Shown piece by piece: positions 37,061 to 50,116 of a stretch of 64,000 nucleotides of DNA (positions are counted from its first letter, which is position 1; each line of letters opens with the position of its first letter). Made by a program: the position numbers and the translations under genes. The stretch lies in the NCBI RefSeq assembly GCF_014204835.1, contig NZ_JACHMD010000001.1, positions 248,001-312,000 on the forward strand. The letters are read 5' to 3'. This DNA comes from Microbacterium marinum. Lineage in GTDB: Bacteria > Actinomycetota > Actinomycetes > Actinomycetales > Microbacteriaceae. The notes under the pieces are model-generated. The model did no database searches. It was given only the letters and a program-made list of their open reading frames with translations, and was not told the origin of the DNA.

Positions 37061-37273
37061 GTGATTGTCTCCTTGGTCTCGGCGGGGTGCACACCAAGAT
37101 CTCAAGGCCCCCCGACTCGCATCGACGCTACCCGCCACCTCGAACGATGCCCACCCGGTGCGCGCCGCGCGTGCCGTGGTTATACTCCGGGCGGTTCGGC
37201 GATGCTCGGCACCGTAAGCCATCGTTCACCCGCTCGCCACCCCGGCGTCACGATCGCTTGTGAGGATCGCGGA

Positions 37274-38251
37274 GTGCCGAAGCCGATCGTGACCGTCATC
37301 CTCCCCGCGAAGGATGCCGGCGCCTTCATCGGTACCACCCTCACGACGCTCGCGCGGCAGTTCGACGATCCCTCACGGCTGCGGCTGGTGGCGATCGACG
37401 ACGGATCTCGCGACGACACCGGCGCGCAGATGCTCCACTACGGGGAGCGCTTCGACCACGTCCAGGTGATCGCGAACACCGACCCGGTCGGATTGGCGGC
37501 GGCGCGGAACCAAGGGATCGCGCGGGTCGACACCGAGTACTTCTGCTTCGTGGACGGCGACGACTGGATGCAGCCCGGCCGTCTCGAGGCGCTTATCGAT
37601 ACGATGCGCGATCTGGAATGCGATTTCGTGCGTACCGACCACCTCGCCGTCACCGACGCGCAGCGCCGCCACGTGCGCGCGCCGTATCCGTGGCGCGGCA
37701 TCGTGTCGCCGGCGCGGAACGCCATCCTCCCTGCGGAGGAGAACTCGATGGTCGACTACCCCTATGCCTGGGCGGGAATGTTCCACCGCCGTGTGATCGA
37801 CGAGGGGCTCGCAGAGTTCCCCGCCGGCTTGCACACGGCGGAGGACCGACCCTGGATCTGGCGCCTCCACCTCTCCGACGCCACGTTCGCCGTCGTGGAT
37901 GCGCCTGCGATCCTCTATCGCCGTGGGGTCAGCACCTCCCTCACCCAGGTCTTCGACCGGCGCCAGCTCGATTTCGTCCCGGCGCTGGCTCAGGCCTATG
38001 AACTCGTCGATGCGGATCGGGATGCCGACCTGTATCGCCCCAAGATCGTCGCGACGATCCTGGCGATCTGCTCGCACCACCTCTTCCGTGCGCGCGCAAT
38101 GAGTGCCCCCCACCGCGCGGAACTGCGCACGGGTCTTCGCGAGCTCCTTCGGCCCATCCCCGCATCCGAGCTCGACGCAGCGCTCGCCCGGCTCTCCGAT
38201 CGCCGGCGGCGCCTGCTCGCGCGAACGGTGCGGGAGGTGCGCCGCGCATGA
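37274..38251 (+). CDS. Family 2 glycosyltransferase, first gene of the nonulosonate glycan locus
   Basis: This 325-residue protein starts at GTG 37274. It has the GT-A fold: VTVILPAKDAGAFIGTTLTT, VAIDDGSRDDTG, NQGIARVDTEYFCFVDGDDW (with the DGDD metal site) and AGMFHRRVIDEGL. A C-terminal helical part of about 110 residues follows. It transfers a sugar from a nucleotide donor, with unknown specificity. The stop overlaps the ATG of the polysialyltransferase-like gene by four bases, so all five genes to 43021 probably form one operon making a surface glycan. Confidence 0.88.
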   Translation: MPKPIVTVILPAKDAGAFIGTTLTTLARQFDDPSRLRLVAIDDGSRDDTGAQMLHYGERFDHVQVIANTDPVGLAAARNQGIARVDTEYFCFVDGDDWMQPGRLEALIDTMRDLECDFVRTDHLAVTDAQRRHVRAPYPWRGIVSPARNAILPAEENSMVDYPYAWAGMFHRRVIDEGLAEFPAGLHTAEDRPWIWRLHLSDATFAVVDAPAILYRRGVSTSLTQVFDRRQLDFVPALAQAYELVDADRDADLYRPKIVATILAICSHHLFRARAMSAPHRAELRTGLRELLRPIPASELDAALARLSDRRRRLLARTVREVRRA

Positions 38252-39600
38252 CCCAGATCTTCGTCCTCAACTCGACGTTCGGTCTGATGACGGCGGTCGC
38301 GGCGATCGACTCGGGTGCGATCGCACCGACCGGCGGGCCGCGCATCCTGCTGACGGTCAATGCCGCGATGGTTCCGGAGGCGACCCCGAGTCTCGAGGAC
38401 ATCCCGCACCTCGCCGCCCTCCTCCGGCGATTCGACCGCGTCGAGTCGCTGGGTGCCCTCGTCGCCCCCGTCCTGCCGACCCAGTGGGAGCCCGGTCCGG
38501 AGGACCTCGCCGTGCTCGAGAGGCTGCTCCGCCGGGTGTGGGGGATCGGATCGGCACGTGTGCAGCTCTTCCTGCAGAGCCCGCAGGTGCCGCCGTCGCG
38601 GACGATGGCAGCGCTGTTCGCGGGCGCGGAGCTCACCGTCGTCGGCGACGGTCTCATGACCTACGCGCCCCTGCGCGTCACCCTTCCGAACGCGACGCTC
38701 TCGCGCATGACCGGCGTCGTCTACGCCGACATCGTCCCGGGAGTCGAGCCCTTCGTGCTCGCGGAGCGCGGCATCGCCCGCCACCCCGTGCCGATGGACC
38801 GCCTGCAGGTCGTCGTCGACGAGGTCGCGGCTGACGTCGTCGACCCCGAGCTCGCGCGCCTGGCCCAGGACCCGGCACCGACGGTGCTCGTCCTCGGGCA
38901 GTACCTGGCCTCGCTCGGGCTCGTCAGCGCGAGCGAAGAGCATGCGATGCAGGCCGAGATGGTCGAGCGCGCCCGTGCGTGGCATCCCGCTCGCATCGTC
39001 TTCAAACCGCACCCGTCCGCTCCGCCGACACTGTCCGACGCGGTCGTGGTGCGTGCACGCGAGCATGATCTCGACGTCGTCGTGTACGAGGGCGATGTGC
39101 CCGCCGAGATTGTCGCCCAGCGCCTCGGCGTCACGGCGGTCGTCGCGGGGTTCTCGACCGCTCTTCCCACCCTGCGCGCGCTCGCCGGCACGCCGATTGC
39201 GTCGGTCGGGAATGCCGAGTTGCTCGCTCGCTTCGACCCGTATGAGAACAGCAATCGGATGCCGGTGACGATCGTCGACGCGCTGACGCGCGACGACTCG
39301 CCGGCGACATCCCTCGCGGACCTCGTCGCGATGACCGCGTACACGATGCAGCCGCGGCTGATGCGTCACCTGCGTCCTCTCGCGGTGAAGACGATCGCCT
39401 CGATGAGCGCCGCCGAGCGCGCCCGCTACATCGGGGAGCGGCGGCTGACCGAACTCCGGCTTCCCGGCGCGTCGGATCGGCTGGCGACGCGCGTGCGATT
39501 TGCGCCGGACGCCGTCAGCAAGATCGAACAGGCGCGCCTCGTGGCGCGTGGCGCACGGCGCCGCGCCGCGCGGGCGTGGAAGGAGCTGAAGGGCCGATGA
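38248..39600 (+). CDS. Polysialyltransferase-family protein (POLYSIA, PF07388-like)
   Basis: This 450-residue protein starts MTQIFVLNSTFGLMTAVAAI, the N-terminal pattern of bacterial alpha-2,8-polysialyltransferase-like enzymes. It has the GT-B catalytic features ELTVVGDGLMTYAP (DG near Asp/Glu), VFKPHPSAPP (the HP motif that binds CMP) and VVAGFSTALPTLRALAG (the S/T-S/T pair). These are the sialyl motifs of the GT38/GT52 type. It would polymerise or add a CMP-activated nonulosonic acid. Neighbouring CMP-nonulosonate genes support this. The identity of the sugar is inferred. Confidence 0.82.
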   Translation: MTQIFVLNSTFGLMTAVAAIDSGAIAPTGGPRILLTVNAAMVPEATPSLEDIPHLAALLRRFDRVESLGALVAPVLPTQWEPGPEDLAVLERLLRRVWGIGSARVQLFLQSPQVPPSRTMAALFAGAELTVVGDGLMTYAPLRVTLPNATLSRMTGVVYADIVPGVEPFVLAERGIARHPVPMDRLQVVVDEVAADVVDPELARLAQDPAPTVLVLGQYLASLGLVSASEEHAMQAEMVERARAWHPARIVFKPHPSAPPTLSDAVVVRAREHDLDVVVYEGDVPAEIVAQRLGVTAVVAGFSTALPTLRALAGTPIASVGNAELLARFDPYENSNRMPVTIVDALTRDDSPATSLADLVAMTAYTMQPRLMRHLRPLAVKTIASMSAAERARYIGERRLTELRLPGASDRLATRVRFAPDAVSKIEQARLVARGARRRAARAWKELKGR

Positions 39601-40748
39601 CAGAGATCTCCGTCGTCGCCGTGATCCCCGCGCGCGGCGGGTCGAAGGGCGTTCTCCGCAAGAACCTCCGCAGGATCGGCGGCGTCCCCCTGGTCGTGCG
39701 CGCGGTGCAGGCGGCGGTGGCCGCGGCATCCGTTGATCTGGTCGTGGTGTCGACCGACGACGATGAGATCGCCGCCGCGGCCCGCGCCGCCGGGGCCCGC
39801 ATCGTCGAGCGGCCCGCAGAACTCGCGGGCGACACCGCCTCGTCGGAGTCGGCGCTGCTGCACGCGCTCGATGTGCTCGCCGGCGAGGGCGTCGAGCCCG
39901 ACGTCGTCGTCTTCCTGCAGGCGACGTCGCCCTTCATTCCCGTCGATGGCATCGACCGCGCGGTCGAGGCGGTGCGCGGCGACTACGACACCGCATTCGC
40001 CGCCCATGAGACGTACGGGTTCCTGTGGCGCCGCGACGAGACCTGTGCGGCGGCGGCGATCAACCACGATGCCGCCCACCGCCCCCGGCGTCAGGACCGG
40101 GAACCGCACTACCTCGAGACCGGGGCGTTCTACGCGATGGATGCCGCTGGCTTCCGCCTCGCGCTGCACCGCTTCTTCGGTCGGACCGCCGTCATCGAGG
40201 TGCCCGAGCGCAGTGCGATCGAGATCGACGACGAGCACCAGCTCGCCGTCGCGGGAGCGCTGGCACCCCTGGTCGACGCGCCGGAGCGACTCGACGTCGA
40301 CGCCGTGGTCACCGACTTCGACGGCGTGCACACCGATGACAGCGCCCTCGTCGACAGCGAGGGCCGCGAGCTGGTGCGCGTGAGCCGGTCGGACGGCATG
40401 GGTGTCGCGTTGCTGCGCCGTGCAGGGGTGCTGCTGCTCATCCTCTCGACCGAGACCAACCCGGTCGTCCGGGCGCGCGCCGAGAAGCTGCGGGTCCCCG
40501 TCCGCCACGGCGTCGAGGACAAGGCGTCCGCGCTCACCGCCTGGGCTGCCGATGCCGGTCTCCGGCTCGATCGGGTCGCCTACCTCGGCAACGACGTCAA
40601 CGACCTGCCCGCCATGTCGCTCGTCGGGTGGCCCGTGGCGACCGCCGACGCGCACCCTGCCGTCCGGGCGGCCGCACGCGTCGTCCTGCAGCGGCGAGGC
40701 GGCCACGGAGCGGTGCGGGAGCTGGCCGACCGCGTGTTGCGCGACTGA
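39597..40748 (+). CDS. Bifunctional CMP-nonulosonate synthetase (NeuA-like) / KdsC-like HAD phosphatase
   Basis: This is a 383-residue fusion. The N-terminal domain (about 1-225) is an acylneuraminate cytidylyltransferase: VVAVIPARGGSKGVLRKNLR (CTP loop), FLQATSPFIPVDGI and PHYLETGAFYAMD. The C-terminal domain (about 235-383) is a KdsC-like HAD phosphatase: VVTDFDGVHTDDSALVDSEG (nucleophile Asp in DFDGVHTD), LLILSTETNP and VAYLGNDVNDLPAM. The phosphatase would remove the 9-phosphate before activation with CTP. Such fusions occur in nonulosonate pathways. It overlaps the preceding stop by four bases. Confidence 0.92.
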   Translation: MTEISVVAVIPARGGSKGVLRKNLRRIGGVPLVVRAVQAAVAAASVDLVVVSTDDDEIAAAARAAGARIVERPAELAGDTASSESALLHALDVLAGEGVEPDVVVFLQATSPFIPVDGIDRAVEAVRGDYDTAFAAHETYGFLWRRDETCAAAAINHDAAHRPRRQDREPHYLETGAFYAMDAAGFRLALHRFFGRTAVIEVPERSAIEIDDEHQLAVAGALAPLVDAPERLDVDAVVTDFDGVHTDDSALVDSEGRELVRVSRSDGMGVALLRRAGVLLLILSTETNPVVRARAEKLRVPVRHGVEDKASALTAWAADAGLRLDRVAYLGNDVNDLPAMSLVGWPVATADAHPAVRAAARVVLQRRGGHGAVRELADRVLRD

Positions 40749-40850
40749 CAGCAGTCGGTGAGACCACGGCCACCCGTGGTTCAGTGCGCGTTCACCGCCC
40801 GCGCGGACCCTGAAGAGGTGCGCGCATCGGCGTGTGCGGAAGGGAACACC

Positions 40851-41723
40851 ATGACCGTCACCATCGGATCCCACGTCATCGGCGGAGGGCGCCCCGTCTA
40901 CGTGATCGGCGAGATCGGCCTCAACCACAACGGTGACGTCGACATCGCCAAGCGGCTCATCGACGTCGCCGCGAAGGCCGGCGCGAACGCCGTCAAGTTC
41001 CAGAAGCGCACCCCCGAGATCGCCACGCCGCCGCACATGCGCGCCACCCCGCGCGAGACGCCGTGGGGCACGATGACCTACCTCGAGTACCGCCACCGCG
41101 TCGAGTTCGACCGCGACCAGTACATCGAGATCGGCGATCACGCGACGATGCTCGGGCTCGACTGGTTCGCCTCGCCGTGGGACGTGCCGAGCGTGGACTT
41201 CCTCGAAGACCTGAACGTGGTCGCCCACAAGGTGGCATCCGCCAGCCTCACCGACATAGAGCTGCTCGAGGCGCTGCGCGCGACAGGCAAGCCCGTCATC
41301 CTCTCGACGGGCATGTCGACCATCGCCCAGATCGACCGCGCACTCGAGGTCCTCGGCACCGACCGCACCGTGCTCATGCACGCGACGTCGACCTACCCGA
41401 TGGAGCCCGAAGAGGCGAACCTCAAGACGATCGCGACCCTCCGCGACCGCTACGCCGGCATCCCCGTCGGCTATTCGGGGCACGAGCGCGGGCTGCAGAT
41501 CTCGCTCGCCGCCGTCGCCCTCGGCGCCGTCGCGGTGGAGCGCCACATCACGCTCGATCGCACCATGTGGGGCTCCGACCAGGCGGCATCCCTCGAGCCC
41601 ACCGGCCTCGAGCACCTCGTCCGCGACATCCGGGTCATCGAGACGGCGCTCGGCGACGGCGTGAAGCGCGTCTTCGACGGCGAGCTCGCTCCGATGGCGA
41701 AGCTGCGGCGCGTCCCGGCATGA
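40851..41723 (+). CDS. N-acetylneuraminate/Kdn-9-phosphate synthase (NeuB-like), without SAF domain
   Basis: This 290-residue protein starts at ATG 40851 after GGAAGGGAA. The NeuB TIM barrel is complete: VYVIGEIGLNHNGDVDIAKR, NAVKFQKRTPEIA, DWFASPWDVPSVDFLE, KPVILSTGMST, LMHATSTYPM, VGYSGHERG and AVERHITLDRTMWGSDQAAS. It condenses PEP with a six-carbon sugar or its 6-phosphate to form a nine-carbon acid. The usual C-terminal SAF/antifreeze-like domain of about 60 residues is missing: the protein stops after the barrel (VFDGELAPMAKLRRVPA). Its 3' end overlaps the next ATG by four bases. Confidence 0.92.
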   Translation: MTVTIGSHVIGGGRPVYVIGEIGLNHNGDVDIAKRLIDVAAKAGANAVKFQKRTPEIATPPHMRATPRETPWGTMTYLEYRHRVEFDRDQYIEIGDHATMLGLDWFASPWDVPSVDFLEDLNVVAHKVASASLTDIELLEALRATGKPVILSTGMSTIAQIDRALEVLGTDRTVLMHATSTYPMEPEEANLKTIATLRDRYAGIPVGYSGHERGLQISLAAVALGAVAVERHITLDRTMWGSDQAASLEPTGLEHLVRDIRVIETALGDGVKRVFDGELAPMAKLRRVPA

Positions 41724-43021
41724 CCTCCCGCAGCGATCGTCGGCCCCGCCTGCGCGTGGTGGCGATCGCCGACGCCGATTCGTTCGTGAAGTGGGGGGCG
41801 TGGCTCATCGACGCCGTCCCCGGCATCAGTCGTCACCTCGTCCTCGTGCGCACCCCGCTGACGGTCAGCGAGGCGCAGCTCGAGTCCGCGCTCGCCGGCA
41901 CCTCGTTCGACACGGATGCCGTGACGAGACTCGACTTCGACGCGGTGGCATCCTGGCTCACGCACGACCGCCCCGACGTCGTCGTGCTCGCCGGCCGGGG
42001 GCCGTTCGTGCGCCTCCTCGGGACGCAGATCGACCGTGTGCACCCCCGTCCGGTGGTCGTGTCGGGGATGCCGGGAGTCTCGATCCCAGCGATGCGCGGC
42101 GCCGCGCAGTACCGCCGTCACACCGACCTCTTCGTCGTGCACTCACGTCGAGAGATGCGCGCGTTCAGCGAGCTGTCCGCGAAGCTGTCGCTGCCGCTGG
42201 ACATCACCCTCGCGACGCTCCCGTACGCGCGCCGGCGCTCCGTCGCGGGAGGAACCGACCTCGTCTTCGCGGCGCAGGCCCTCGTGCCGCGAACGCGGGA
42301 GGAGAGGATCCGCCTGGCGGACATCCTCCGCCAGGCCGCTCTCGCGGATCCGAACCGGCGGGTCGTGGTGAAGCTCCGCTCGCGCCCCGGCGAAAGCGAG
42401 ACGCACGGCGAGCAGTTCGGCTTCACCGGCCTCCTCGCCGATCGGCCGGACAACCTCGTCTTCTCGCACGCGCCCATGTCGGAGGCGCTCACGACCGCCG
42501 CCGGCCTCGTGACCGTGAGCTCGACGGCGGCGCTCGAGGCGATCGCGGCGGGGGTGCCCGTCATCGCGCTCGACACCTTCGGGGTCTCCAAGCACAACCT
42601 CAACACCGTGTTCGAGCGGAGCGGTCTGCTCGGTTCGGCGGACGACGTGGTCGCCGGCAGGTTCCGGCATCCCAATGCCGTCTGGATGCGCGACAACTAC
42701 TTCCACGATGCCGACGAGTCCACCTGGTGGGGTCGGGTGGAACGGCTGGTCGCCAAGCGTCGGGCGGGGAATCTGCCGCCGCGTCGTGTGCCCGTCCCAC
42801 GCGGGGGCGCGCTGCACGCCGCATGGCACCGCAAGAGCGTGCTGGGCAGTGCCGACCGGACCGTCTCCGGTGCCGTCGCCGTCGCAGTGGTCGGTCCCGT
42901 GGTCCGCGCGCTCGTCGCCCTCCGTCGACGGGGGCGCGTCGGCGCGGGGTCGTGGCGCGACACCGCCTCGGATTTCACCCTCACGCCGTCGCACACGGCG
43001 AGCCCGGTGCCGCTGCGCTGA
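41720..43021 (+). CDS. DUF6716 putative glycosyltransferase
   Basis: This 433-residue protein starts MTSRSDRRPRLRVVAIADAD. It resembles GT-B enzymes related to polysialyl- and teichoic-acid-type transferases: VVSGMPGVSIPAMRG, HTDLFVVHSRREMRAFSEL, LVTVSSTAALEAIAAGVPV (nucleotide-sugar binding helix) and ALDTFGVSKHNLNTVFE. Actinobacteria keep this family next to NeuB/NeuA genes. It probably adds a further unit of the same glycan. A C-terminal stretch AVAVAVVGPVVRALVALRRR may associate with the membrane. It is the last gene of the locus. Confidence 0.8.
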   Translation: MTSRSDRRPRLRVVAIADADSFVKWGAWLIDAVPGISRHLVLVRTPLTVSEAQLESALAGTSFDTDAVTRLDFDAVASWLTHDRPDVVVLAGRGPFVRLLGTQIDRVHPRPVVVSGMPGVSIPAMRGAAQYRRHTDLFVVHSRREMRAFSELSAKLSLPLDITLATLPYARRRSVAGGTDLVFAAQALVPRTREERIRLADILRQAALADPNRRVVVKLRSRPGESETHGEQFGFTGLLADRPDNLVFSHAPMSEALTTAAGLVTVSSTAALEAIAAGVPVIALDTFGVSKHNLNTVFERSGLLGSADDVVAGRFRHPNAVWMRDNYFHDADESTWWGRVERLVAKRRAGNLPPRRVPVPRGGALHAAWHRKSVLGSADRTVSGAVAVAVVGPVVRALVALRRRGRVGAGSWRDTASDFTLTPSHTASPVPLR

Positions 43022-45459: not shown

Positions 45460-45825
45460 ATGACGCACATCCACCAGTACGAACTCATGGTGATCCTCGA
45501 CCCCGAGGTCGACGAGCGCCAGGTCGTACCCAAGCTCGACGGGTTCCTGAAGGTCATCACCGCTGATGGTGGCTCGATCGACAACGTCGACGTGTGGGGC
45601 AAGCGCCGTCTTGCTTACGAGATCCAGAAGAAGAACGAGGGCATCTACGCCGTCGTCAACTTCACGGGTACCAGCGAGGCCACGCAGGAGCTCGACCGTC
45701 AGCTCAAGCTGAACGAGCAGATCATGCGCACCAAGGTCCTCCGCGCCGAGGAGGCGATCGCTCAGGTCGCCGCCGAGAAGGAGCGCGCTGAGGCCAAGGC
45801 TGCCCGCAAGGCTGCGAAGGCCTAA
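45460..45825 (+). CDS. rpsF: 30S ribosomal protein S6
   Basis: This 121-residue S6 starts [20 protein letters not shown], with the family motif [20 protein letters not shown] and a charged C-terminus ([16 protein letters not shown]). It binds 16S rRNA with S18. It heads the rpsF-ssb-rpsR-rplI operon; ssb starts six bases after its stop. Confidence 0.98.
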
Positions 45826-45830
45826 GGCTC

Positions 45831-46346
45831 ATGGCCGGCGAGACCATCATCACGGTCGTGGGGAACCTCACGGCGGACCCCGAGCTGCGGTACACGCAGA
45901 ACGGTCTCCCCGTCGCGAACTTCACGATCGCGTCGACGCCCCGCAGCTTCGACCGTCAGGCGAACGAGTGGAAGGACGGCGAAGCGCTGTTCATGCGCGC
46001 GTCGGTCTGGCGCGAGTTCGCTGAGCACGTGGCCGGCTCGCTCACCAAGGGCATGCGGGTCGTCGCGACCGGCCGCCTGAAGCAGCGCTCCTACCAGGAC
46101 CGCGAAGGCAACAACCGCACGGCGATCGAGCTGGAGGTCGACGAGATCGGCCCCTCGCTCCGGTACGCCACGGCGCAGGTCACCCGTGCCGCCAGCAATG
46201 GCGGCGGCGGGAACTTCGGCGGCGGCGGTGGACAGCAGTCGCGTCCGCAGGTGCAGCAGGACGAGCCCTGGGCGACGCCCGGGACCTCCGCTCCTGACGC
46301 ATGGAGCGCGCCCGGGACGAGCTACGGCGACGACACCCCGTTCTGA
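45831..46346 (+). CDS. ssb: Single-stranded DNA-binding protein
   Basis: This 171-residue SSB has an OB-fold N-terminal domain ([58 protein letters not shown]). A Gly-rich linker follows ([15 protein letters not shown]), and the acidic tip ends DDTPF, which recruits partner proteins. It protects ssDNA in replication and repair. It lies between rpsF and rpsR, as is usual. Confidence 0.97.
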
Positions 46347-46356
46347 ATCGAATTCC

Positions 46357-46379
46357 GGATGCCGCGAGGCGCGGCATCC
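46357..46379 (+). promoter_or_regulatory. Hairpin in the ssb-rpsR spacer
   Basis: A perfect 9-bp stem, GGATGCCGC-GAGGC-GCGGCATCC, sits ten bases after the ssb stop and 20 bases before the rpsR start. It may tune mRNA stability or act as a partial terminator. Its arm uses the GGATGCC word that recurs across the window. Confidence 0.55.
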
Positions 46380-46399
46380 ACATCTCTTAAGGAAGACAC

Positions 46400-46654
46400 A
46401 TGGCTGGAAAGGCAACCGGCGATCGCCGCAAGCCGCGGAAGGGCGCGAAGAACGCCGCTCCCGCGAAGGCGATCCGCGTCGGCGTCATCGACTACAAGGA
46501 CGTCGCAACGCTTCGTAAGTTCATCTCGGAGCGCGGGAAGATCCGCGCCCGTCGTATCACCGGAGTCTCGGTGCAGGAGCAGCGTCTGATCGCCAAGGCG
46601 ATCAAGAACGCCCGCGAAATGGCGCTCCTGCCCTACGCCGGCGCTGGCCGGTAA
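46400..46654 (+). CDS. rpsR: 30S ribosomal protein S18
   Basis: This 84-residue S18 starts [20 protein letters not shown], with [20 protein letters not shown] and [20 protein letters not shown]. No Cys cluster is present, so it is the zinc-independent (C-) form. It follows ssb and precedes rplI by 11 bases. Confidence 0.97.
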
Positions 46655-46665
46655 GGAGCACCGAC

Positions 46666-47118
46666 ATGGCAAAGCTGATTCTCACGAACGAGGTCGCCGG
46701 GCTCGGTAGCGCCGGCGACGTCATCGAGGTCAAGAACGGGTACGCCCGCAACTACCTCATCCCCCAGGGCTTCGCTGTGGCCTGGACCCGCGGTGGCGAG
46801 AAGCAGGTGGCGTCGATCCGCGCCGCCCGCGAGTCGCGTGCGATCCACGACCACGAAGAGGCCGTGGCCCTCAAGAACACGCTCGAGTCGAACACGGTCA
46901 AGCTGACCGTGAAGGCCGGCGCCGAGGGTCGCCTGTTCGGTTCGGTCAAGCCGGCCGACGTGGCCGACGCCGTCAAGGCCGCCGGTCTGGGTGACCTCGA
47001 CAAGCGCAAGATCCACATCACCGCGCCGATCAAGGCCGTGGGCGAGCACGAGGCGACCATTCGTCTGCGTGACGACCTCACCGCTGCGATCACGCTGCAG
47101 GTGGTTGCCGCCAAGTAA
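46666..47118 (+). CDS. rplI: 50S ribosomal protein L9
   Basis: This 150-residue L9 starts [20 protein letters not shown], with [17 protein letters not shown] and the C-terminal domain [19 protein letters not shown]. It binds 23S rRNA and reaches toward the L1 stalk. It is the last gene of the rpsF operon and ends before a strong terminator. Confidence 0.97.
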
Positions 47119-47382: not shown

Positions 47383-48939
47383 TCAGACCGTGCGGCGGCG
47401 ACGGATCAGCAGCGCTCCGGCCGCGATCAGTGCGCCGGCGAACAGCGGGGTGAGCAGCGACGCGGTGCCGCCGGTCTCCGCGAGCGCCTCAGCGCTCTCC
47501 GCCGTCATCTCCGCACCGACAGCACTCGGCGTGCCGGAGCCGGGAATCTGGTCGTCGGTGCCCAGCCCGGGCTCGTCGCCCGGCACGGTACCGGGGTCAA
47601 CGCCCGGGTCCGTCGGGTCCGTCGGGTCGGTGGGGTCCGTCGGGTCCGTCGGGTCGGTGGGGTCCGTCGGGTCCGTGGGGTCCGTCGGGACCGTGGGAAC
47701 CGTCGGGACCGTGGGAACGGTCGGCGTGGTGGTGTCACCGCTGTCGGTCGAGCTGTCGCCGATGACGGAGACGGCGGTGTCGCCGACCGTCACAGGGATG
47801 TCGATCGGCAGGATCACCTGGGTTCCGCTGCCCGTTCCGTCCTCGCCCGACGTGCTCGGCGCCCCGGGGCCGGTGGTGCCGGTTCCGGTGGTGGTGTCGT
47901 CGCTGGTGGTCGAGCTGTCGCCGATCACGGAGACGGCGGTGTCGTCGATGGTCACGGGGATGCCGATCGGTGCGACGACCTGGGTTCCACCGGCGGTGCC
48001 GTCTTCACCCGAGGTGGTCGGTGCGCCGGTGCTGGAGCCGGTTCCGGCAGTGCCGGTGGTGGTGTCACCGCTGGTGGTCGAGCTGTCGCCGATCACGGAG
48101 ACGGCGGTGTCGTCGACGGTCACGGGGATCCCGATCGGTGCGACGACCTGCGAGCCGGATGCCACACCGTCGCTGCCCGAGGTGGTCGGTGCGCCGGTGG
48201 TGGTACCGTCCGTGCCCGCGGTGGTGGTGTCACCGCTGTCGGGCGAGCTGTCGCCGATGACCGAGACGGCCACGTCGTCGACGCTCACCGGGACGGTGAC
48301 GGGTGCGACGACCTGGGTGCCGCTGGCGGTCCCCTCGGCTCCGTCGGTGGTGGCGGCAGGAGTGCCTCCGCTCTCTGTGGCCGGTGTCGCCGCGCCGGCG
48401 TCGCCGCTGTCGGTCGAGCTGTCGCCGATGACCGAGACGGCCACGTCGTCGACGCTCACCGGGACGGTGACAGGTGCGACGACCTGGGTTCCGCTGGCAG
48501 TGCCGTCGGAACCGCTCGTCGACGGCTCCGATTCCGCGGGTGCGGCCGGTGCGGCATCCGTCTCGTCCGACGACTCGGTCGAGCTGTCGCCGACCACGGC
48601 GACAGCCACGTCACCGACCGAGATCGGAACGGACACATCGACGAGCGCCTGCGTACCTGACGCGGTGCCATCGGAACCGTCGGTGGTGGGAGCCGACTCC
48701 GCGGGCGCTGCCGGTGCGGCATCCGTCTGGTCGGAGGATTCCGCCCTGCTGTCGCCGATGACCGAGACGGCGACGTCGCCCAGGTCGACGGGTACATCGA
48801 CGTTGATGATGGATTGGGTCCCGGAAAGCAGACCGTCCTCCCCTGAGGTCTCCGCAGCGTTTGCCGCTGCGGCGCCGAAGAGCGTGATGCCTCCGGCCAC
48901 GAGCGTCCCGAGAAGGACGCGCTTGCACATGGCGTTCAT
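47383..48939 (-). CDS. Surface protein with seven chaplin-like repeats and a LAETG sorting signal
   Basis: This 518-residue protein starts at ATG 48939 (RBS GGAGAGATGAA). A signal peptide (CKRVLLGTLVAGGITLFGAA) is followed by seven repeats of 48-62 residues. Each carries a core like GTQVVAPVTVPVSVDDVAVS, then VIGDSST. This core resembles the chaplin pattern of Streptomyces (VQVPVHVPVN-NTVSVIG) but has Asp in place of Cys. Between repeats are Ser/Thr/Asp-rich linkers. A (TVP)n(TDP)n spacer precedes the C-terminal wall-sorting signal LAETGG, a hydrophobic helix, and RRRR. LAxTG is the motif of class E sortases of high-GC actinobacteria. It should be covalently attached to the wall. Confidence 0.85.
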   Translation of the reverse strand: MNAMCKRVLLGTLVAGGITLFGAAAANAAETSGEDGLLSGTQSIINVDVPVDLGDVAVSVIGDSRAESSDQTDAAPAAPAESAPTTDGSDGTASGTQALVDVSVPISVGDVAVAVVGDSSTESSDETDAAPAAPAESEPSTSGSDGTASGTQVVAPVTVPVSVDDVAVSVIGDSSTDSGDAGAATPATESGGTPAATTDGAEGTASGTQVVAPVTVPVSVDDVAVSVIGDSSPDSGDTTTAGTDGTTTGAPTTSGSDGVASGSQVVAPIGIPVTVDDTAVSVIGDSSTTSGDTTTGTAGTGSSTGAPTTSGEDGTAGGTQVVAPIGIPVTIDDTAVSVIGDSSTTSDDTTTGTGTTGPGAPSTSGEDGTGSGTQVILPIDIPVTVGDTAVSVIGDSSTDSGDTTTPTVPTVPTVPTVPTDPTDPTDPTDPTDPTDPTDPTDPTDPGVDPGTVPGDEPGLGTDDQIPGSGTPSAVGAEMTAESAEALAETGGTASLLTPLFAGALIAAGALLIRRRRTV

Positions 48940-49036
48940 TTCATCTCTCCAAAAGTGTGAAAACTGACGGCGCAGAGTGCGCCATGGCGCGGATGCGCCG
49001 GGGACCGTGCCGCACGAAGGGGCGGCCGGGTCGCCG

Positions 49037-50116
49037 TCAGTCGGGAGAGACGTCGGTGTCGAAGAAGGGGGCCGGAAGAGCGTCATCGCTGCCCGGCATT
49101 CCTCGACGCACCCAGGCACGGTGTGCGAAGAGGAAGGCGAACGGCAGCACGGCGCTCAGACCGGCCACACCTCCGAAGCTGGACGAGAAAGCCGCGGGTG
49201 TCGCTGCCCCGCCACCGAGGGCGGGCGCCGACATTGGGAAGACGAGGTCGTGCAGGAGGACGACGGTGATTGAGCCGACGGTTGCGCCGGCGGCGCTCAA
49301 CGCATCCCCGAAGGTCACACGTGTGTCAGCGAAAGGCAGAATGCCGCCAGTGCGTGCGCCCGCGGCAGTCGCACTGGAGATGGTGTCAGCGCCAACGACA
49401 GCGGGAGCAGCAGCGACTGATCCGGGAATGGGCGCCACTGATCCGGGCGAAGTCGGAAGGCCGTTCTCGCCGGCTCCGCCGTCCACGAAACCCGCCCCCG
49501 GGGAGGGCGCAACGGGATCGATCGCGGGGGTCAGTGCCTCCGAGATCGGAGTCGTGATCGGGGCGATCACTGCGTCGTTCACGGGTGCAACGACGTCGTC
49601 GATCACACCGCTGACGGGCTCCAGGACGGGCGCCACGACAGCGTCGACCGTCTCGAGCACTGGCGTCGCCACCGGCGTGACGACCTTCTCGGTGACCGGC
49701 TGGACGACGTTCTCGACCACGGGCTTCACGACCGGCGCGACGATGTTGTCTGCGATGGGCTTCGCGACCGGCGCGACGACCTTGTCGGCGACGGGCTTCA
49801 CGACCTTGTCGGCGACGGGCTTCACGACCGGCGCGACGACCTTGTCGGCGACGGGCTTCACGACCTTGTCGGCGACGGGCTTCACGACCGGCGCGACGAT
49901 CTCGTCGGCGACGGGCTTCACAACCTCGTCCACGACGTCGCTGACCGGTGCGGTGAGTGACCGGAGCACCCCACCTTCTGATGACCCCTCGTCCTTTGCG
50001 TGCGCCGCGGACGGGGAGAGGATCGTGACGAGCGCGGCCCAGAGGAGAGCGAAGCCGACGCCGGCGATCGCCAGAACGACGAATCGAGTGCGTGCACGGA
50101 ATGCCACGGTATCCAC
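49037..50116 (-). CDS. Secreted/membrane protein with VVKPVADK repeats
   Basis: This 359-residue protein starts at GTG 50116, six bases after GGAGG. An N-terminal hydrophobic signal (FVVLAIAGVGFALLWAALVT) is followed by about 15 imperfect copies of an 11-residue repeat like VVKPVADKVVA (residues about 60-180), with alternating Val/Pro. A Pro/Ala linker and one or two C-terminal hydrophobic segments (VGSITVVLLHDLVFP, AGLSAVLPFAFLFAHRAW) end the protein. The repeat period suggests an extended filament-like stalk. It lies 97 bases upstream of the chaplin-like gene on the same strand, and the two may be co-expressed at the surface. Function unknown. Confidence 0.75.
   Translation of the reverse strand: MDTVAFRARTRFVVLAIAGVGFALLWAALVTILSPSAAHAKDEGSSEGGVLRSLTAPVSDVVDEVVKPVADEIVAPVVKPVADKVVKPVADKVVAPVVKPVADKVVKPVADKVVAPVAKPIADNIVAPVVKPVVENVVQPVTEKVVTPVATPVLETVDAVVAPVLEPVSGVIDDVVAPVNDAVIAPITTPISEALTPAIDPVAPSPGAGFVDGGAGENGLPTSPGSVAPIPGSVAAAPAVVGADTISSATAAGARTGGILPFADTRVTFGDALSAAGATVGSITVVLLHDLVFPMSAPALGGGAATPAAFSSSFGGVAGLSAVLPFAFLFAHRAWVRRGMPGSDDALPAPFFDTDVSPD
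49741..49920 (-). repeat. 60-bp tandem repeats inside the VVKPVADK protein gene
   Basis: The blocks 49801-49860 and 49861-49920 are 58/60 identical, and 49741-49800 is a more divergent copy. Each 60-bp block encodes about two 10-residue PVADKVV units. The near identity suggests recent slippage or unequal crossing over. Confidence 0.85.

What the first reader, a model, noticed from the sequence alone, without database searches (positions are those of the whole stretch)
37274..43021. Compact five-gene nonulosonate polymer locus with a POLYSIA-family transferase and no epimerase
The five genes are coupled by 4-bp overlaps, apart from a 102-bp gap before the synthase gene. Seen: NeuB-like synthase, NeuA-like cytidylyltransferase fused to a KdsC-like HAD phosphatase, polysialyltransferase-family protein, DUF6716 transferase, GT2. 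Known: Kdn synthesis in Bacteroides needs only a Kdn-9-P synthase, a phosphatase and a cytidylyltransferase, while Neu5Ac, legionaminate and pseudaminate also need NeuC-type epimerases or amino-sugar enzymes. None of those is here. Known: some actinobacteria carry teichulosonic acids that contain Kdn-type sugars. Inference: the locus makes and polymerises a Kdn-type nonulosonic acid as a wall glycan.
Basis: partly seen in the sequence, partly recalled or inferred. Interest (0 to 1): 0.75.

Follow-up and report, generated by a model that had tools for sequence, protein, structure and literature searches.

The report
Likely Kdn wall-polymer operon in Microbacterium
A five-gene operon in a Microbacterium-like bacterium most likely makes a sialic-acid-like sugar called Kdn from ordinary mannose phosphate and builds it into a phosphate-free wall polymer, of a sort known from Streptomyces, perhaps when phosphate runs short.

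Summary
Five genes, three 4-bp overlaps, one 102-bp gap: confirmed. The Kdn reading is well supported, not shown. The genome (3.12 Mb, complete) has one NeuB and no match to NeuC/WecB, AGE or NanE, no sugar-type DegT aminotransferase, and a ManA. The synthase lacks the SAF domain whose Arg314 contacts ManNAc in Neisseria NeuB. In 120 family genomes, 37 short synthases have NeuC nearby in 0 and DUF6716 in 36; 14 SAF synthases have NeuC in 6 (five loci) and DUF6716 in 0. The HAD domain keeps the Kdn-9-P phosphatase markers. The 'polyST' models best onto a known polysialyltransferase. Core: NeuA(-HAD), short NeuB, DUF6716; GT2+polyST is a variable cassette. Five Streptomyces-type loci carry the same set, and Streptomyces makes Kdn teichulosonic acid. 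New: GTTCACC, the Streptomyces PhoP-box core (recalled), is the commonest 7-mer before the operon (28/30 and 24/29 related loci), forms a perfect repeat before a pstS-type gene of this genome, and also sits in the 102-bp gap. Complication: DUF6716's model resembles UDP-GlcNAc 2-epimerases, but their catalytic residues are missing. Verdict: new member of a known kind; wall chemistry untested.

The parts
37224..37252 (+). PhoP-box-like element before the operon: one exact core GTTCACC and two degenerate 11-nt units
   Evidence: three-unit score 15 of 21, reached by 24 of 2000 random windows of 220 nt; GTTCACC in the 200 nt before the operon in 28 of 30 polyST-type loci
37274..38251 (+). Family 2 glycosyltransferase (GTG start), predicted hexosyltransferase of the repeating unit
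   Evidence: PF00535 90 bits; in the 132 family loci homologues over 300 bits occur only with the polyST (31 loci)
38248..39600 (+). PF07388 polysialyltransferase-family protein, predicted CMP-Kdn transferase or polymerase
39597..40748 (+). CMP-nonulosonate cytidylyltransferase fused to a KdsC-like HAD phosphatase (domains about 39597-40271 and 40272-40745)
   Evidence: HAD has Glu56/Arg64/Lys67 equivalents of BT1713
40779..40796 (+). Second PhoP-box-like repeat GTTCAGTGCGCGTTCACC inside the 102-bp gap (2 mismatches)
   Evidence: GTTCACC in the 200 nt before NeuB in 16 of 59 related loci
40851..41723 (+). SAF-less NeuB-family synthase (290 aa), predicted Kdn-9-phosphate synthase
   Evidence: PF03102 265 bits, no SAF; TIGR03569 255 bits, under cut-off 400
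41720..43021 (+). DUF6716, GT-B fold, predicted CMP-Kdn transferase, near-obligate partner of the short NeuB
   Evidence: PF20471 412 bits; model pLDDT 92.5; 36 of 37 short-NeuB survey loci

Best explanation
The operon is a teichulosonic-acid (Kdn wall polymer) locus. Proposed route: ManA gives mannose-6-P; the short NeuB condenses it with PEP to Kdn-9-P; the HAD domain removes the phosphate; the fused NeuA makes CMP-Kdn; DUF6716 and the polyST, both GT-B, transfer Kdn, and GT2 adds a hexose, giving an anionic polymer that genes elsewhere export and fix to the wall. PhoP switches it on in phosphate shortage, so that a phosphate-free polymer stands in for teichoic acid. Shown: gene content, family assignments, missing epimerases and sugar aminotransferases, specificity markers, co-occurrence, conserved upstream motif. 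Inferred: substrate, product, order of transfers, wall location, PhoP control.
For: Own genome, 99.99% complete: NeuB 1, Epimerase_2 0, AGE 0, NanE 0, ManA 1; nine partial DegT matches of at most 34 bits, of which the eight scanned are amino-acid PLP enzymes. Short NeuB has no SAF (0 of 10 scanned, 117); all 14 SAF-length NeuBs of the family have it, with invariant R315-P316. SAF Arg314 of Neisseria NeuB contacts ManNAc, and R314A is inactive (PMC6795526 passages). Epimerase_2 is no commoner in short-NeuB genomes (14 of 37) than in others (30 of 83; p=1.0, 108). HAD markers 84/85, 85/85, 84/85 (58). PolyST fold. DUF6716 in 37 and short NeuB in 37 of 120 genomes, both in 36. Five Streptomyces-type loci hold the same genes; Streptomyces teichulosonic acid has Kdn (PMC7831098, PMC11481543 passages, 27, 28) and its cluster SCO4873-SCO4882 is called a PhoP target (PMC13011467 passages). 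GTTCACC upstream in 28/30 and 24/29 loci against 1/118 coding windows; perfect repeat before a pstS-type gene.
Confidence: 0.74

Rival explanations
1. DUF6716 is a hidden UDP-GlcNAc 2-epimerase (NeuC stand-in), so that the locus makes Neu5Ac or a relative, not Kdn.
Against: NeuC residues that are invariant in A3 and that I recall as catalytic (D81, E106, D113, H188) align with R93, a gap, R126 and Ala in DUF6716 (the N-terminal half is aligned with low confidence). Pfam at E 10: Glycos_transf_1 in 29 and Capsule_synth in 20 of 57 members, Epimerase_2 in 1 at E 0.16. ManNAc from such an epimerase would not need a 9-P phosphatase.
Confidence: 0.1
2. The locus makes CMP-Kdn, but Kdn is only a side group or cap on another wall polymer, glycolipid or protein; there is no Kdn polymer.
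For: 25 or 26 of 37 short-NeuB survey loci (one hit is marginal) have neither polyST nor the ~300-aa alternative, so DUF6716 must suffice there; PF07388 membership does not prove polymerisation.
Against: The window has the polyST+GT2 cassette, also present in the five Streptomyces-type loci; in Streptomyces coelicolor Kdn belongs to the repeating unit of the wall polymer (PMC7831098 passage).
Confidence: 0.2
3. The operon makes another nonulosonate or an octulosonate (legionaminate, pseudaminate, Kdo).
For: PseF is the best NCBIfam model for the NeuA domain (113.6 bits, cut-off 205.7).
Against: The genome's DegT matches are amino-acid enzymes (eight of nine scanned); the NeuA domain matches CMP-sialate synthetases of the PDB (80-115 bits) far better than KdsB (32 bits or less); the HAD carries the Kdn-9-P and not the Kdo-8-P markers.
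Confidence: 0.04

Closest known systems
Streptomyces teichulosonic-acid cluster SCO4873-SCO4882 (Ostash et al. 2014, seen only as a citation in PMC13011467 and PMC8003754)
   Same: Five Streptomyces-type loci examined here (L203-L207) carry short NeuB, NeuA, DUF6716, GT2 and polyST together; the cluster is reported as PhoP-controlled and the polymer as Kdn-containing
   Different: Here five genes on one strand; the Streptomyces-type loci are divergent and add a ~300-aa sialyltransferase-like gene; identity of those loci with SCO4873-4882 was not tested
Bacteroides thetaiotaomicron Kdn pathway (BT1713, BT1714; and Prymnesium parvum, PMC6200933 passages)
   Same: Synthase, HAD 9-phosphatase with Glu56/Arg64/Lys67, CMP-sugar synthetase; Man-6-P as start
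   Different: Phosphatase fused to the cytidylyltransferase; the BT1714 sequence was not on hand, so the synthases were not compared
Leptospira sialate synthase (PDB 6ncs; organism recalled)
   Same: Best solved relative of the synthase (172.8 bits; chain of 290 aa)
   Different: Leptospira interrogans is reported to have a synthase-phosphatase fusion for Neu5Ac (PMC3438082 passages); here the phosphatase sits on NeuA
Bacterial polysialyltransferase (PDB 5wc6/5wcn, Mannheimia recalled) and PF07388
   Different: 12% identity; about 100 C-terminal residues lie outside the match; activity unknown

Membership tests
Kdn-9-P pathway (B. thetaiotaomicron type) | HAD phosphatase with Glu56, Arg64, Lys67 (markers recalled from Lu et al. 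2009, not held; PDB chains 4hgq and 4hgr are changed at 56 and at 56+67) | tested here: met
   all three in the window; 84, 85 and 84 of 85 domains
Kdn-9-P pathway (B. thetaiotaomicron type) | No ManNAc source or amino-sugar enzymes needed; mannose-6-P available | tested here: met
   no match; amino-acid enzymes only, 8 of 9 scanned; ManA present
Kdn-9-P pathway (B. thetaiotaomicron type) | NCBIfam equivalog cut-off of Kdn-9-P phosphatase (NF058599, 180 bits) | tested here: not met
   99.6 bits, best model for the domain but under cut-off
Kdn-9-P pathway (B. thetaiotaomicron type) | Synthase uses Man-6-P, not ManNAc(-6-P) | not testable with these tools
   Needs enzyme assay
Sialate synthase NeuB (TIGR03569 equivalog) | C-terminal SAF domain with the ManNAc-contacting Arg; score over 399.65 | tested here: not met
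   No SAF; 255.2 bits
Teichulosonic-acid locus | Gene set of Streptomyces-type loci (short NeuB, NeuA, DUF6716, GT2, polyST) | tested here: met
   (five loci)
Teichulosonic-acid locus | Sequence identity with SCO4873-SCO4882 | not tested
   S. coelicolor record not on hand
Teichulosonic-acid locus | Kdn in a wall polymer | not testable with these tools
   No chemistry; searches listed no paper on it for this genus
Teichulosonic-acid locus | PhoP-box control | tested here: inconclusive
   Conserved GTTCACC, three-unit scores, perfect repeat at one pstS-type gene; binding not shown; window pair pattern not significant alone
Bacterial polysialyltransferase PF07388 | Profile over gathering score and polyST fold | tested here: met
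Bacterial polysialyltransferase PF07388 | D/E-D/E-G and HP motifs (recalled) | tested here: inconclusive
   HP invariant (H255-P256); the first motif reads GDG
UDP-GlcNAc 2-epimerase (NeuC/WecB), for DUF6716 | Catalytic Asp, Glu, Asp/Glu, His (recalled) | tested here: not met
   N-terminal part aligned with low confidence

The most novel reading that the evidence does not exclude
NeuA(-HAD), the SAF-less NeuB and DUF6716 form an ancient, PhoP-controlled Kdn module shared by Streptomyces, further families of the class and Microbacteriaceae, in which DUF6716 is a new family of CMP-Kdn transferases that arose on the epimerase-like GT-B fold, while a swappable slot (polyST+GT2, or a ~300-aa sialyltransferase-like protein) sets the polymer's structure.
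Probability: 0.45. Interest if true: 0.65.

Novelty: new member of a known kind. Interest (0 to 1): 0.5.

Why it matters
Teichulosonic acids have been described mainly by chemistry, and the papers seen here tie genes to them only in Streptomyces. If right, a three-gene signature (SAF-less NeuB, NeuA-HAD, DUF6716) predicts Kdn polymers from genomes alone across actinobacteria, gives DUF6716 a function, and extends the phosphate-saving swap of wall polymers to another large family. It would also mean that the public name 'N-acetylneuraminate synthase' for these proteins is misleading.

Tried and rejected
DUF6716 as epimerase: see rivals; rejected on residues, not on fold. An epimerase elsewhere: no Epimerase_2, AGE or NanE match in the genome. 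DUF6716 against polyST and polyST against NeuC by hhalign: nothing (E 0.2 and 0.37). Pfam gives the ~300-aa alternative (A4, 20 members) no convincing family even at E 10; it has DDG and PHRRE stretches and a weak match to the polyST profile (E 0.0098, probability 4.2%). The ORF upstream of NeuA in Curtobacterium L043 has no Pfam family. Promoter and terminator scans found nothing. The PstS-like match over the family cut-off (L217/L220) has no PhoP box; the second (L221, 190.9 bits, cut-off 205; PBP_like_2 in Pfam; lipoprotein-like leader read by eye) has one. Fold searches: families absent from the lists are not excluded. Paper searches for Microbacterium nonulosonates, DUF6716 and Kdn in Microbacteriaceae gave nothing on point; the nearest is PMC6106888, whose passages predict sialic-acid and KDO additions from genes in Pontimonas. 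PF01238 found no ManA part; PF20511 did. Three survey loci repeat named ones (L141=L074, L155=L043, L156=L071), so the 132 family loci are 129 distinct.
Full report
What is there. The five genes are as described: GT2, PF07388 polyST, NeuA fused to a KdsC-like HAD, a NeuB-family synthase and DUF6716, with ATGA overlaps at three junctions and a 102-bp gap before neuB. The window is C1:248001-312000 of a 3,124,335-base single-contig genome, 99.99% complete. The nearest named synthases are from Microbacterium (94%, M. dauci; 93%, M. oleivorans).

No known source of an amino sugar. The genome has one NeuB, no match to Epimerase_2, which covers NeuC and WecB, none to AGE or NanE. DegT gives nine partial matches, over Pfam's cut-off of 19.8 but at most 34.3 bits and over 76-174 of 360 positions; the eight that were held as loci score with NCBIfam as sulfhydrylases, cystathionine synthase, amino-acid aminotransferases and serine hydroxymethyltransferase. 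One mannose-6-P isomerase match is present (61.5 bits; PF01238 gave none). So the known routes to ManNAc, legionaminate and pseudaminate precursors look closed and mannose-6-P open.

A different synthase. It ends at residue 290 without SAF domain. In Neisseria NeuB this domain's Arg314 contacts ManNAc, and R314A is inactive (PMC6795526, passages). By the HMMER alignment to 1xuu Glu25, Lys53, Gln55, Lys129, Tyr186, Ser213, His215, Glu234 and His236 are kept, Thr110, Phe112 and Asn184 read Ser, Trp and Ser, and Asn74 falls at a gap (residue list from that paper, except Lys53 and His236, recalled). The best solved relative is 6ncs, a 290-aa chain.

A natural contrast. Among 120 evenly drawn genomes of the family, 50 have NeuB, 54 matches. 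All 54 were fetched with up to 7 kb on each side and sorted by script: 37 short, 14 SAF-length, 3 of 632 aa. A NeuC profile hits near 0 of 37 short and 6 of 14 SAF-length proteins, in five loci (p=1.7e-4); DUF6716 near 36 of 37 short and none of the other 17 (p=4e-13). All 14 SAF-length proteins have SAF and an invariant Arg-Pro in that region (R315-P316); all 14 match both the PseI and the NeuB model, and the first is over the PseI cut-off (the others' scores were not listed). Over whole genomes Epimerase_2 (44 of 120) is present in 14 of 37 short-NeuB genomes and 30 of 83 others (p=1.0; 14 and 28 over the cut-off, p=0.68). DUF6716 is in 37 genomes and short NeuB in 37, both in 36; exceptions G060 (DUF6716 only, a 90-contig draft) and G027.

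The phosphatase. Aligned with BT1713 (PDB 3e81), the window's HAD keeps Glu56, Arg64 and Lys67, which I recall as Kdn-9-P markers from Lu et al. 2009 (not held); 3n1u in the same output has Ala and Gln for the first and last. In the 85 HAD domains found in 132 family loci the counts are E 84, R 85, K 84, all on the NeuA ORF. But 12 of 37 survey loci and 20 of 80 named loci have none nearby. In Prymnesium, too, no phosphatase was found in the transcriptome (PMC6200933 passages).

Core and cassette. In the 132 family loci (129 distinct) the gene before NeuA is a polyST in 32 (GT2 beside it in 31; the contig of L025 begins at the polyST), or a ~300-aa protein (A4; invariant VESPLQ, DDG, PHRRE) in 30, one of these weak; never both. 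hhalign links the two weakly (E 0.0098, probability 4.2%). In the survey the polyST is in 3 of 37 short-type loci, one of them the window. So the core is NeuA(-HAD), NeuB and DUF6716. The 80 named loci (best 80 of 586) are close relatives and overstate the polyST (29 of 80).

Streptomyces. DUF6716 is in 41 of 196 genomes of the class, 16 of them in one genus (g100) of 6-11 Mb genomes. Of 14 larger loci fetched, the five of g100 (L203-L207) all carry short NeuB, NeuA, DUF6716, GT2, polyST and the ~300-aa protein; the HAD profile hit four of the five, not L205 (layout of L203 and L206). Of the 120 proteins listed for the L203 synthase, those named by NCBI are Streptomyces, one Streptomycetaceae, so g100 is taken to be Streptomyces. 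The other nine loci: L214 and L216 have all seven profiles, L210 all but NeuA (stretch begins inside the HAD ORF), L212 and L213 have NeuA, HAD, NeuB and two DUF6716 but no polyST, and L208, L209, L211 and L215 show no NeuB in the stretch. Streptomyces coelicolor teichulosonic acid contains galactose and Kdn (PMC7831098 passage; PMC11481543 passage), a Promicromonospora polymer glucose and Kdn (PMC6801904 passage), and the S. coelicolor cluster SCO4873-SCO4882 is described as PhoP-controlled (PMC13011467 passages; S. lividans proteins, PMC8003754 passages). In contrast, PMC13274773 (passages) doubts that another polymer, a teichuronic-acid-like one of S. griseus, merely replaces teichoic acid. 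That L203-L207 are SCO4873-4882 is inference.

PhoP box. Ranking all 7-mers in the 200 nt before the operon, GTTCACC comes first in both operon types: 28 of 30 (polyST type; L157 left out, L025 has no GT2) and 24 of 29 (alternative type; L171 left out; L141 repeats L074), against 1 of 118 coding windows and about 3% expected. Before NeuB, inside the operon, it is in 16 of 59. By a two-unit score (GTTCACC twice at 11 nt), 11 of 14 or more is reached in 30 of 32 and 19 of 29 loci, 11 of 131 regions before NeuB, and 113 of 3000 random windows. GTTCACC at 11-nt spacing is the Streptomyces PhoP box (recalled; paper not held). Before one of two PstS-type genes of this genome stands the perfect repeat GTTCACCTGTCGTTCACC; the other has none. 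Between DUF6716 and GT2 the five Streptomyces-type loci have two-unit scores of 10, which are not unusual (620 of 3000 random windows reach 10), but three-unit scores of 14-16, reached by 68 (14) to 12 (16) of 2000; exact GTTCACC on either strand in 4 of 5. Limits: the loci are related; in the window alone the pair pattern is not significant (8 found, 5 expected), and GTTCACC occurs 18 times (7 expected).

Verdict. A new member of a known kind: most likely a Kdn teichulosonic-acid operon under phosphate control. Kdn chemistry, wall location, PhoP binding and the share of work between DUF6716, polyST and GT2 remain to be shown.

Noticed in passing
L165, L167, L168 (632-aa ORFs): Three family genomes have a NeuB of 632 aa; the one scanned (L165) is NeuB + SAF + xylose-isomerase-like TIM barrel, perhaps a synthase fused to a sugar epimerase.
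   Followed up: partly
control genomes: The E. coli control genome gives a DUF6716 match over the cut-off, the only one of 14 controls; not explained.
   Followed up: no
L146 (G027; contig length equals the 1,760,810 bases given for Pontimonas salivibrio in PMC6106888's abstract): Short NeuB and NeuA-HAD but no DUF6716 match in the genome, so another transferase must serve there.
   Followed up: partly
P0241, P0322: Natural fusions of the short NeuB: with a HAD-type hydrolase domain (P0241) and with a NeuA-type domain in Streptomyces sp. ISL-43 (P0322), in line with one pathway.
   Followed up: no
L171, L012, L075, G057: Broken or split frames: NeuB in L171, DUF6716 in L012, NeuA and NeuB in L075, a stop in one DUF6716 of G057; described only.
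   Followed up: no
L065:7834-8742 and homologues (A4): A ~300-aa family without Pfam entry, with VESPLQ, DDG, PHRRE and SS..TTL stretches, looks like an undescribed sialyltransferase-type family tied to DUF6716 loci.
   Followed up: partly
window 45460-47118: Right of the operon lie the genes of ribosomal protein S6, SSB and ribosomal protein L9, so the locus sits next to housekeeping genes.
   Followed up: yes
window 47383-49119, minus strand: A 578-aa protein matches the chaplin repeat family ChpA-C (59.9 bits), with repeats of the kind VSVIGDSS and an LAETG-like end (read by eye).
   Followed up: partly
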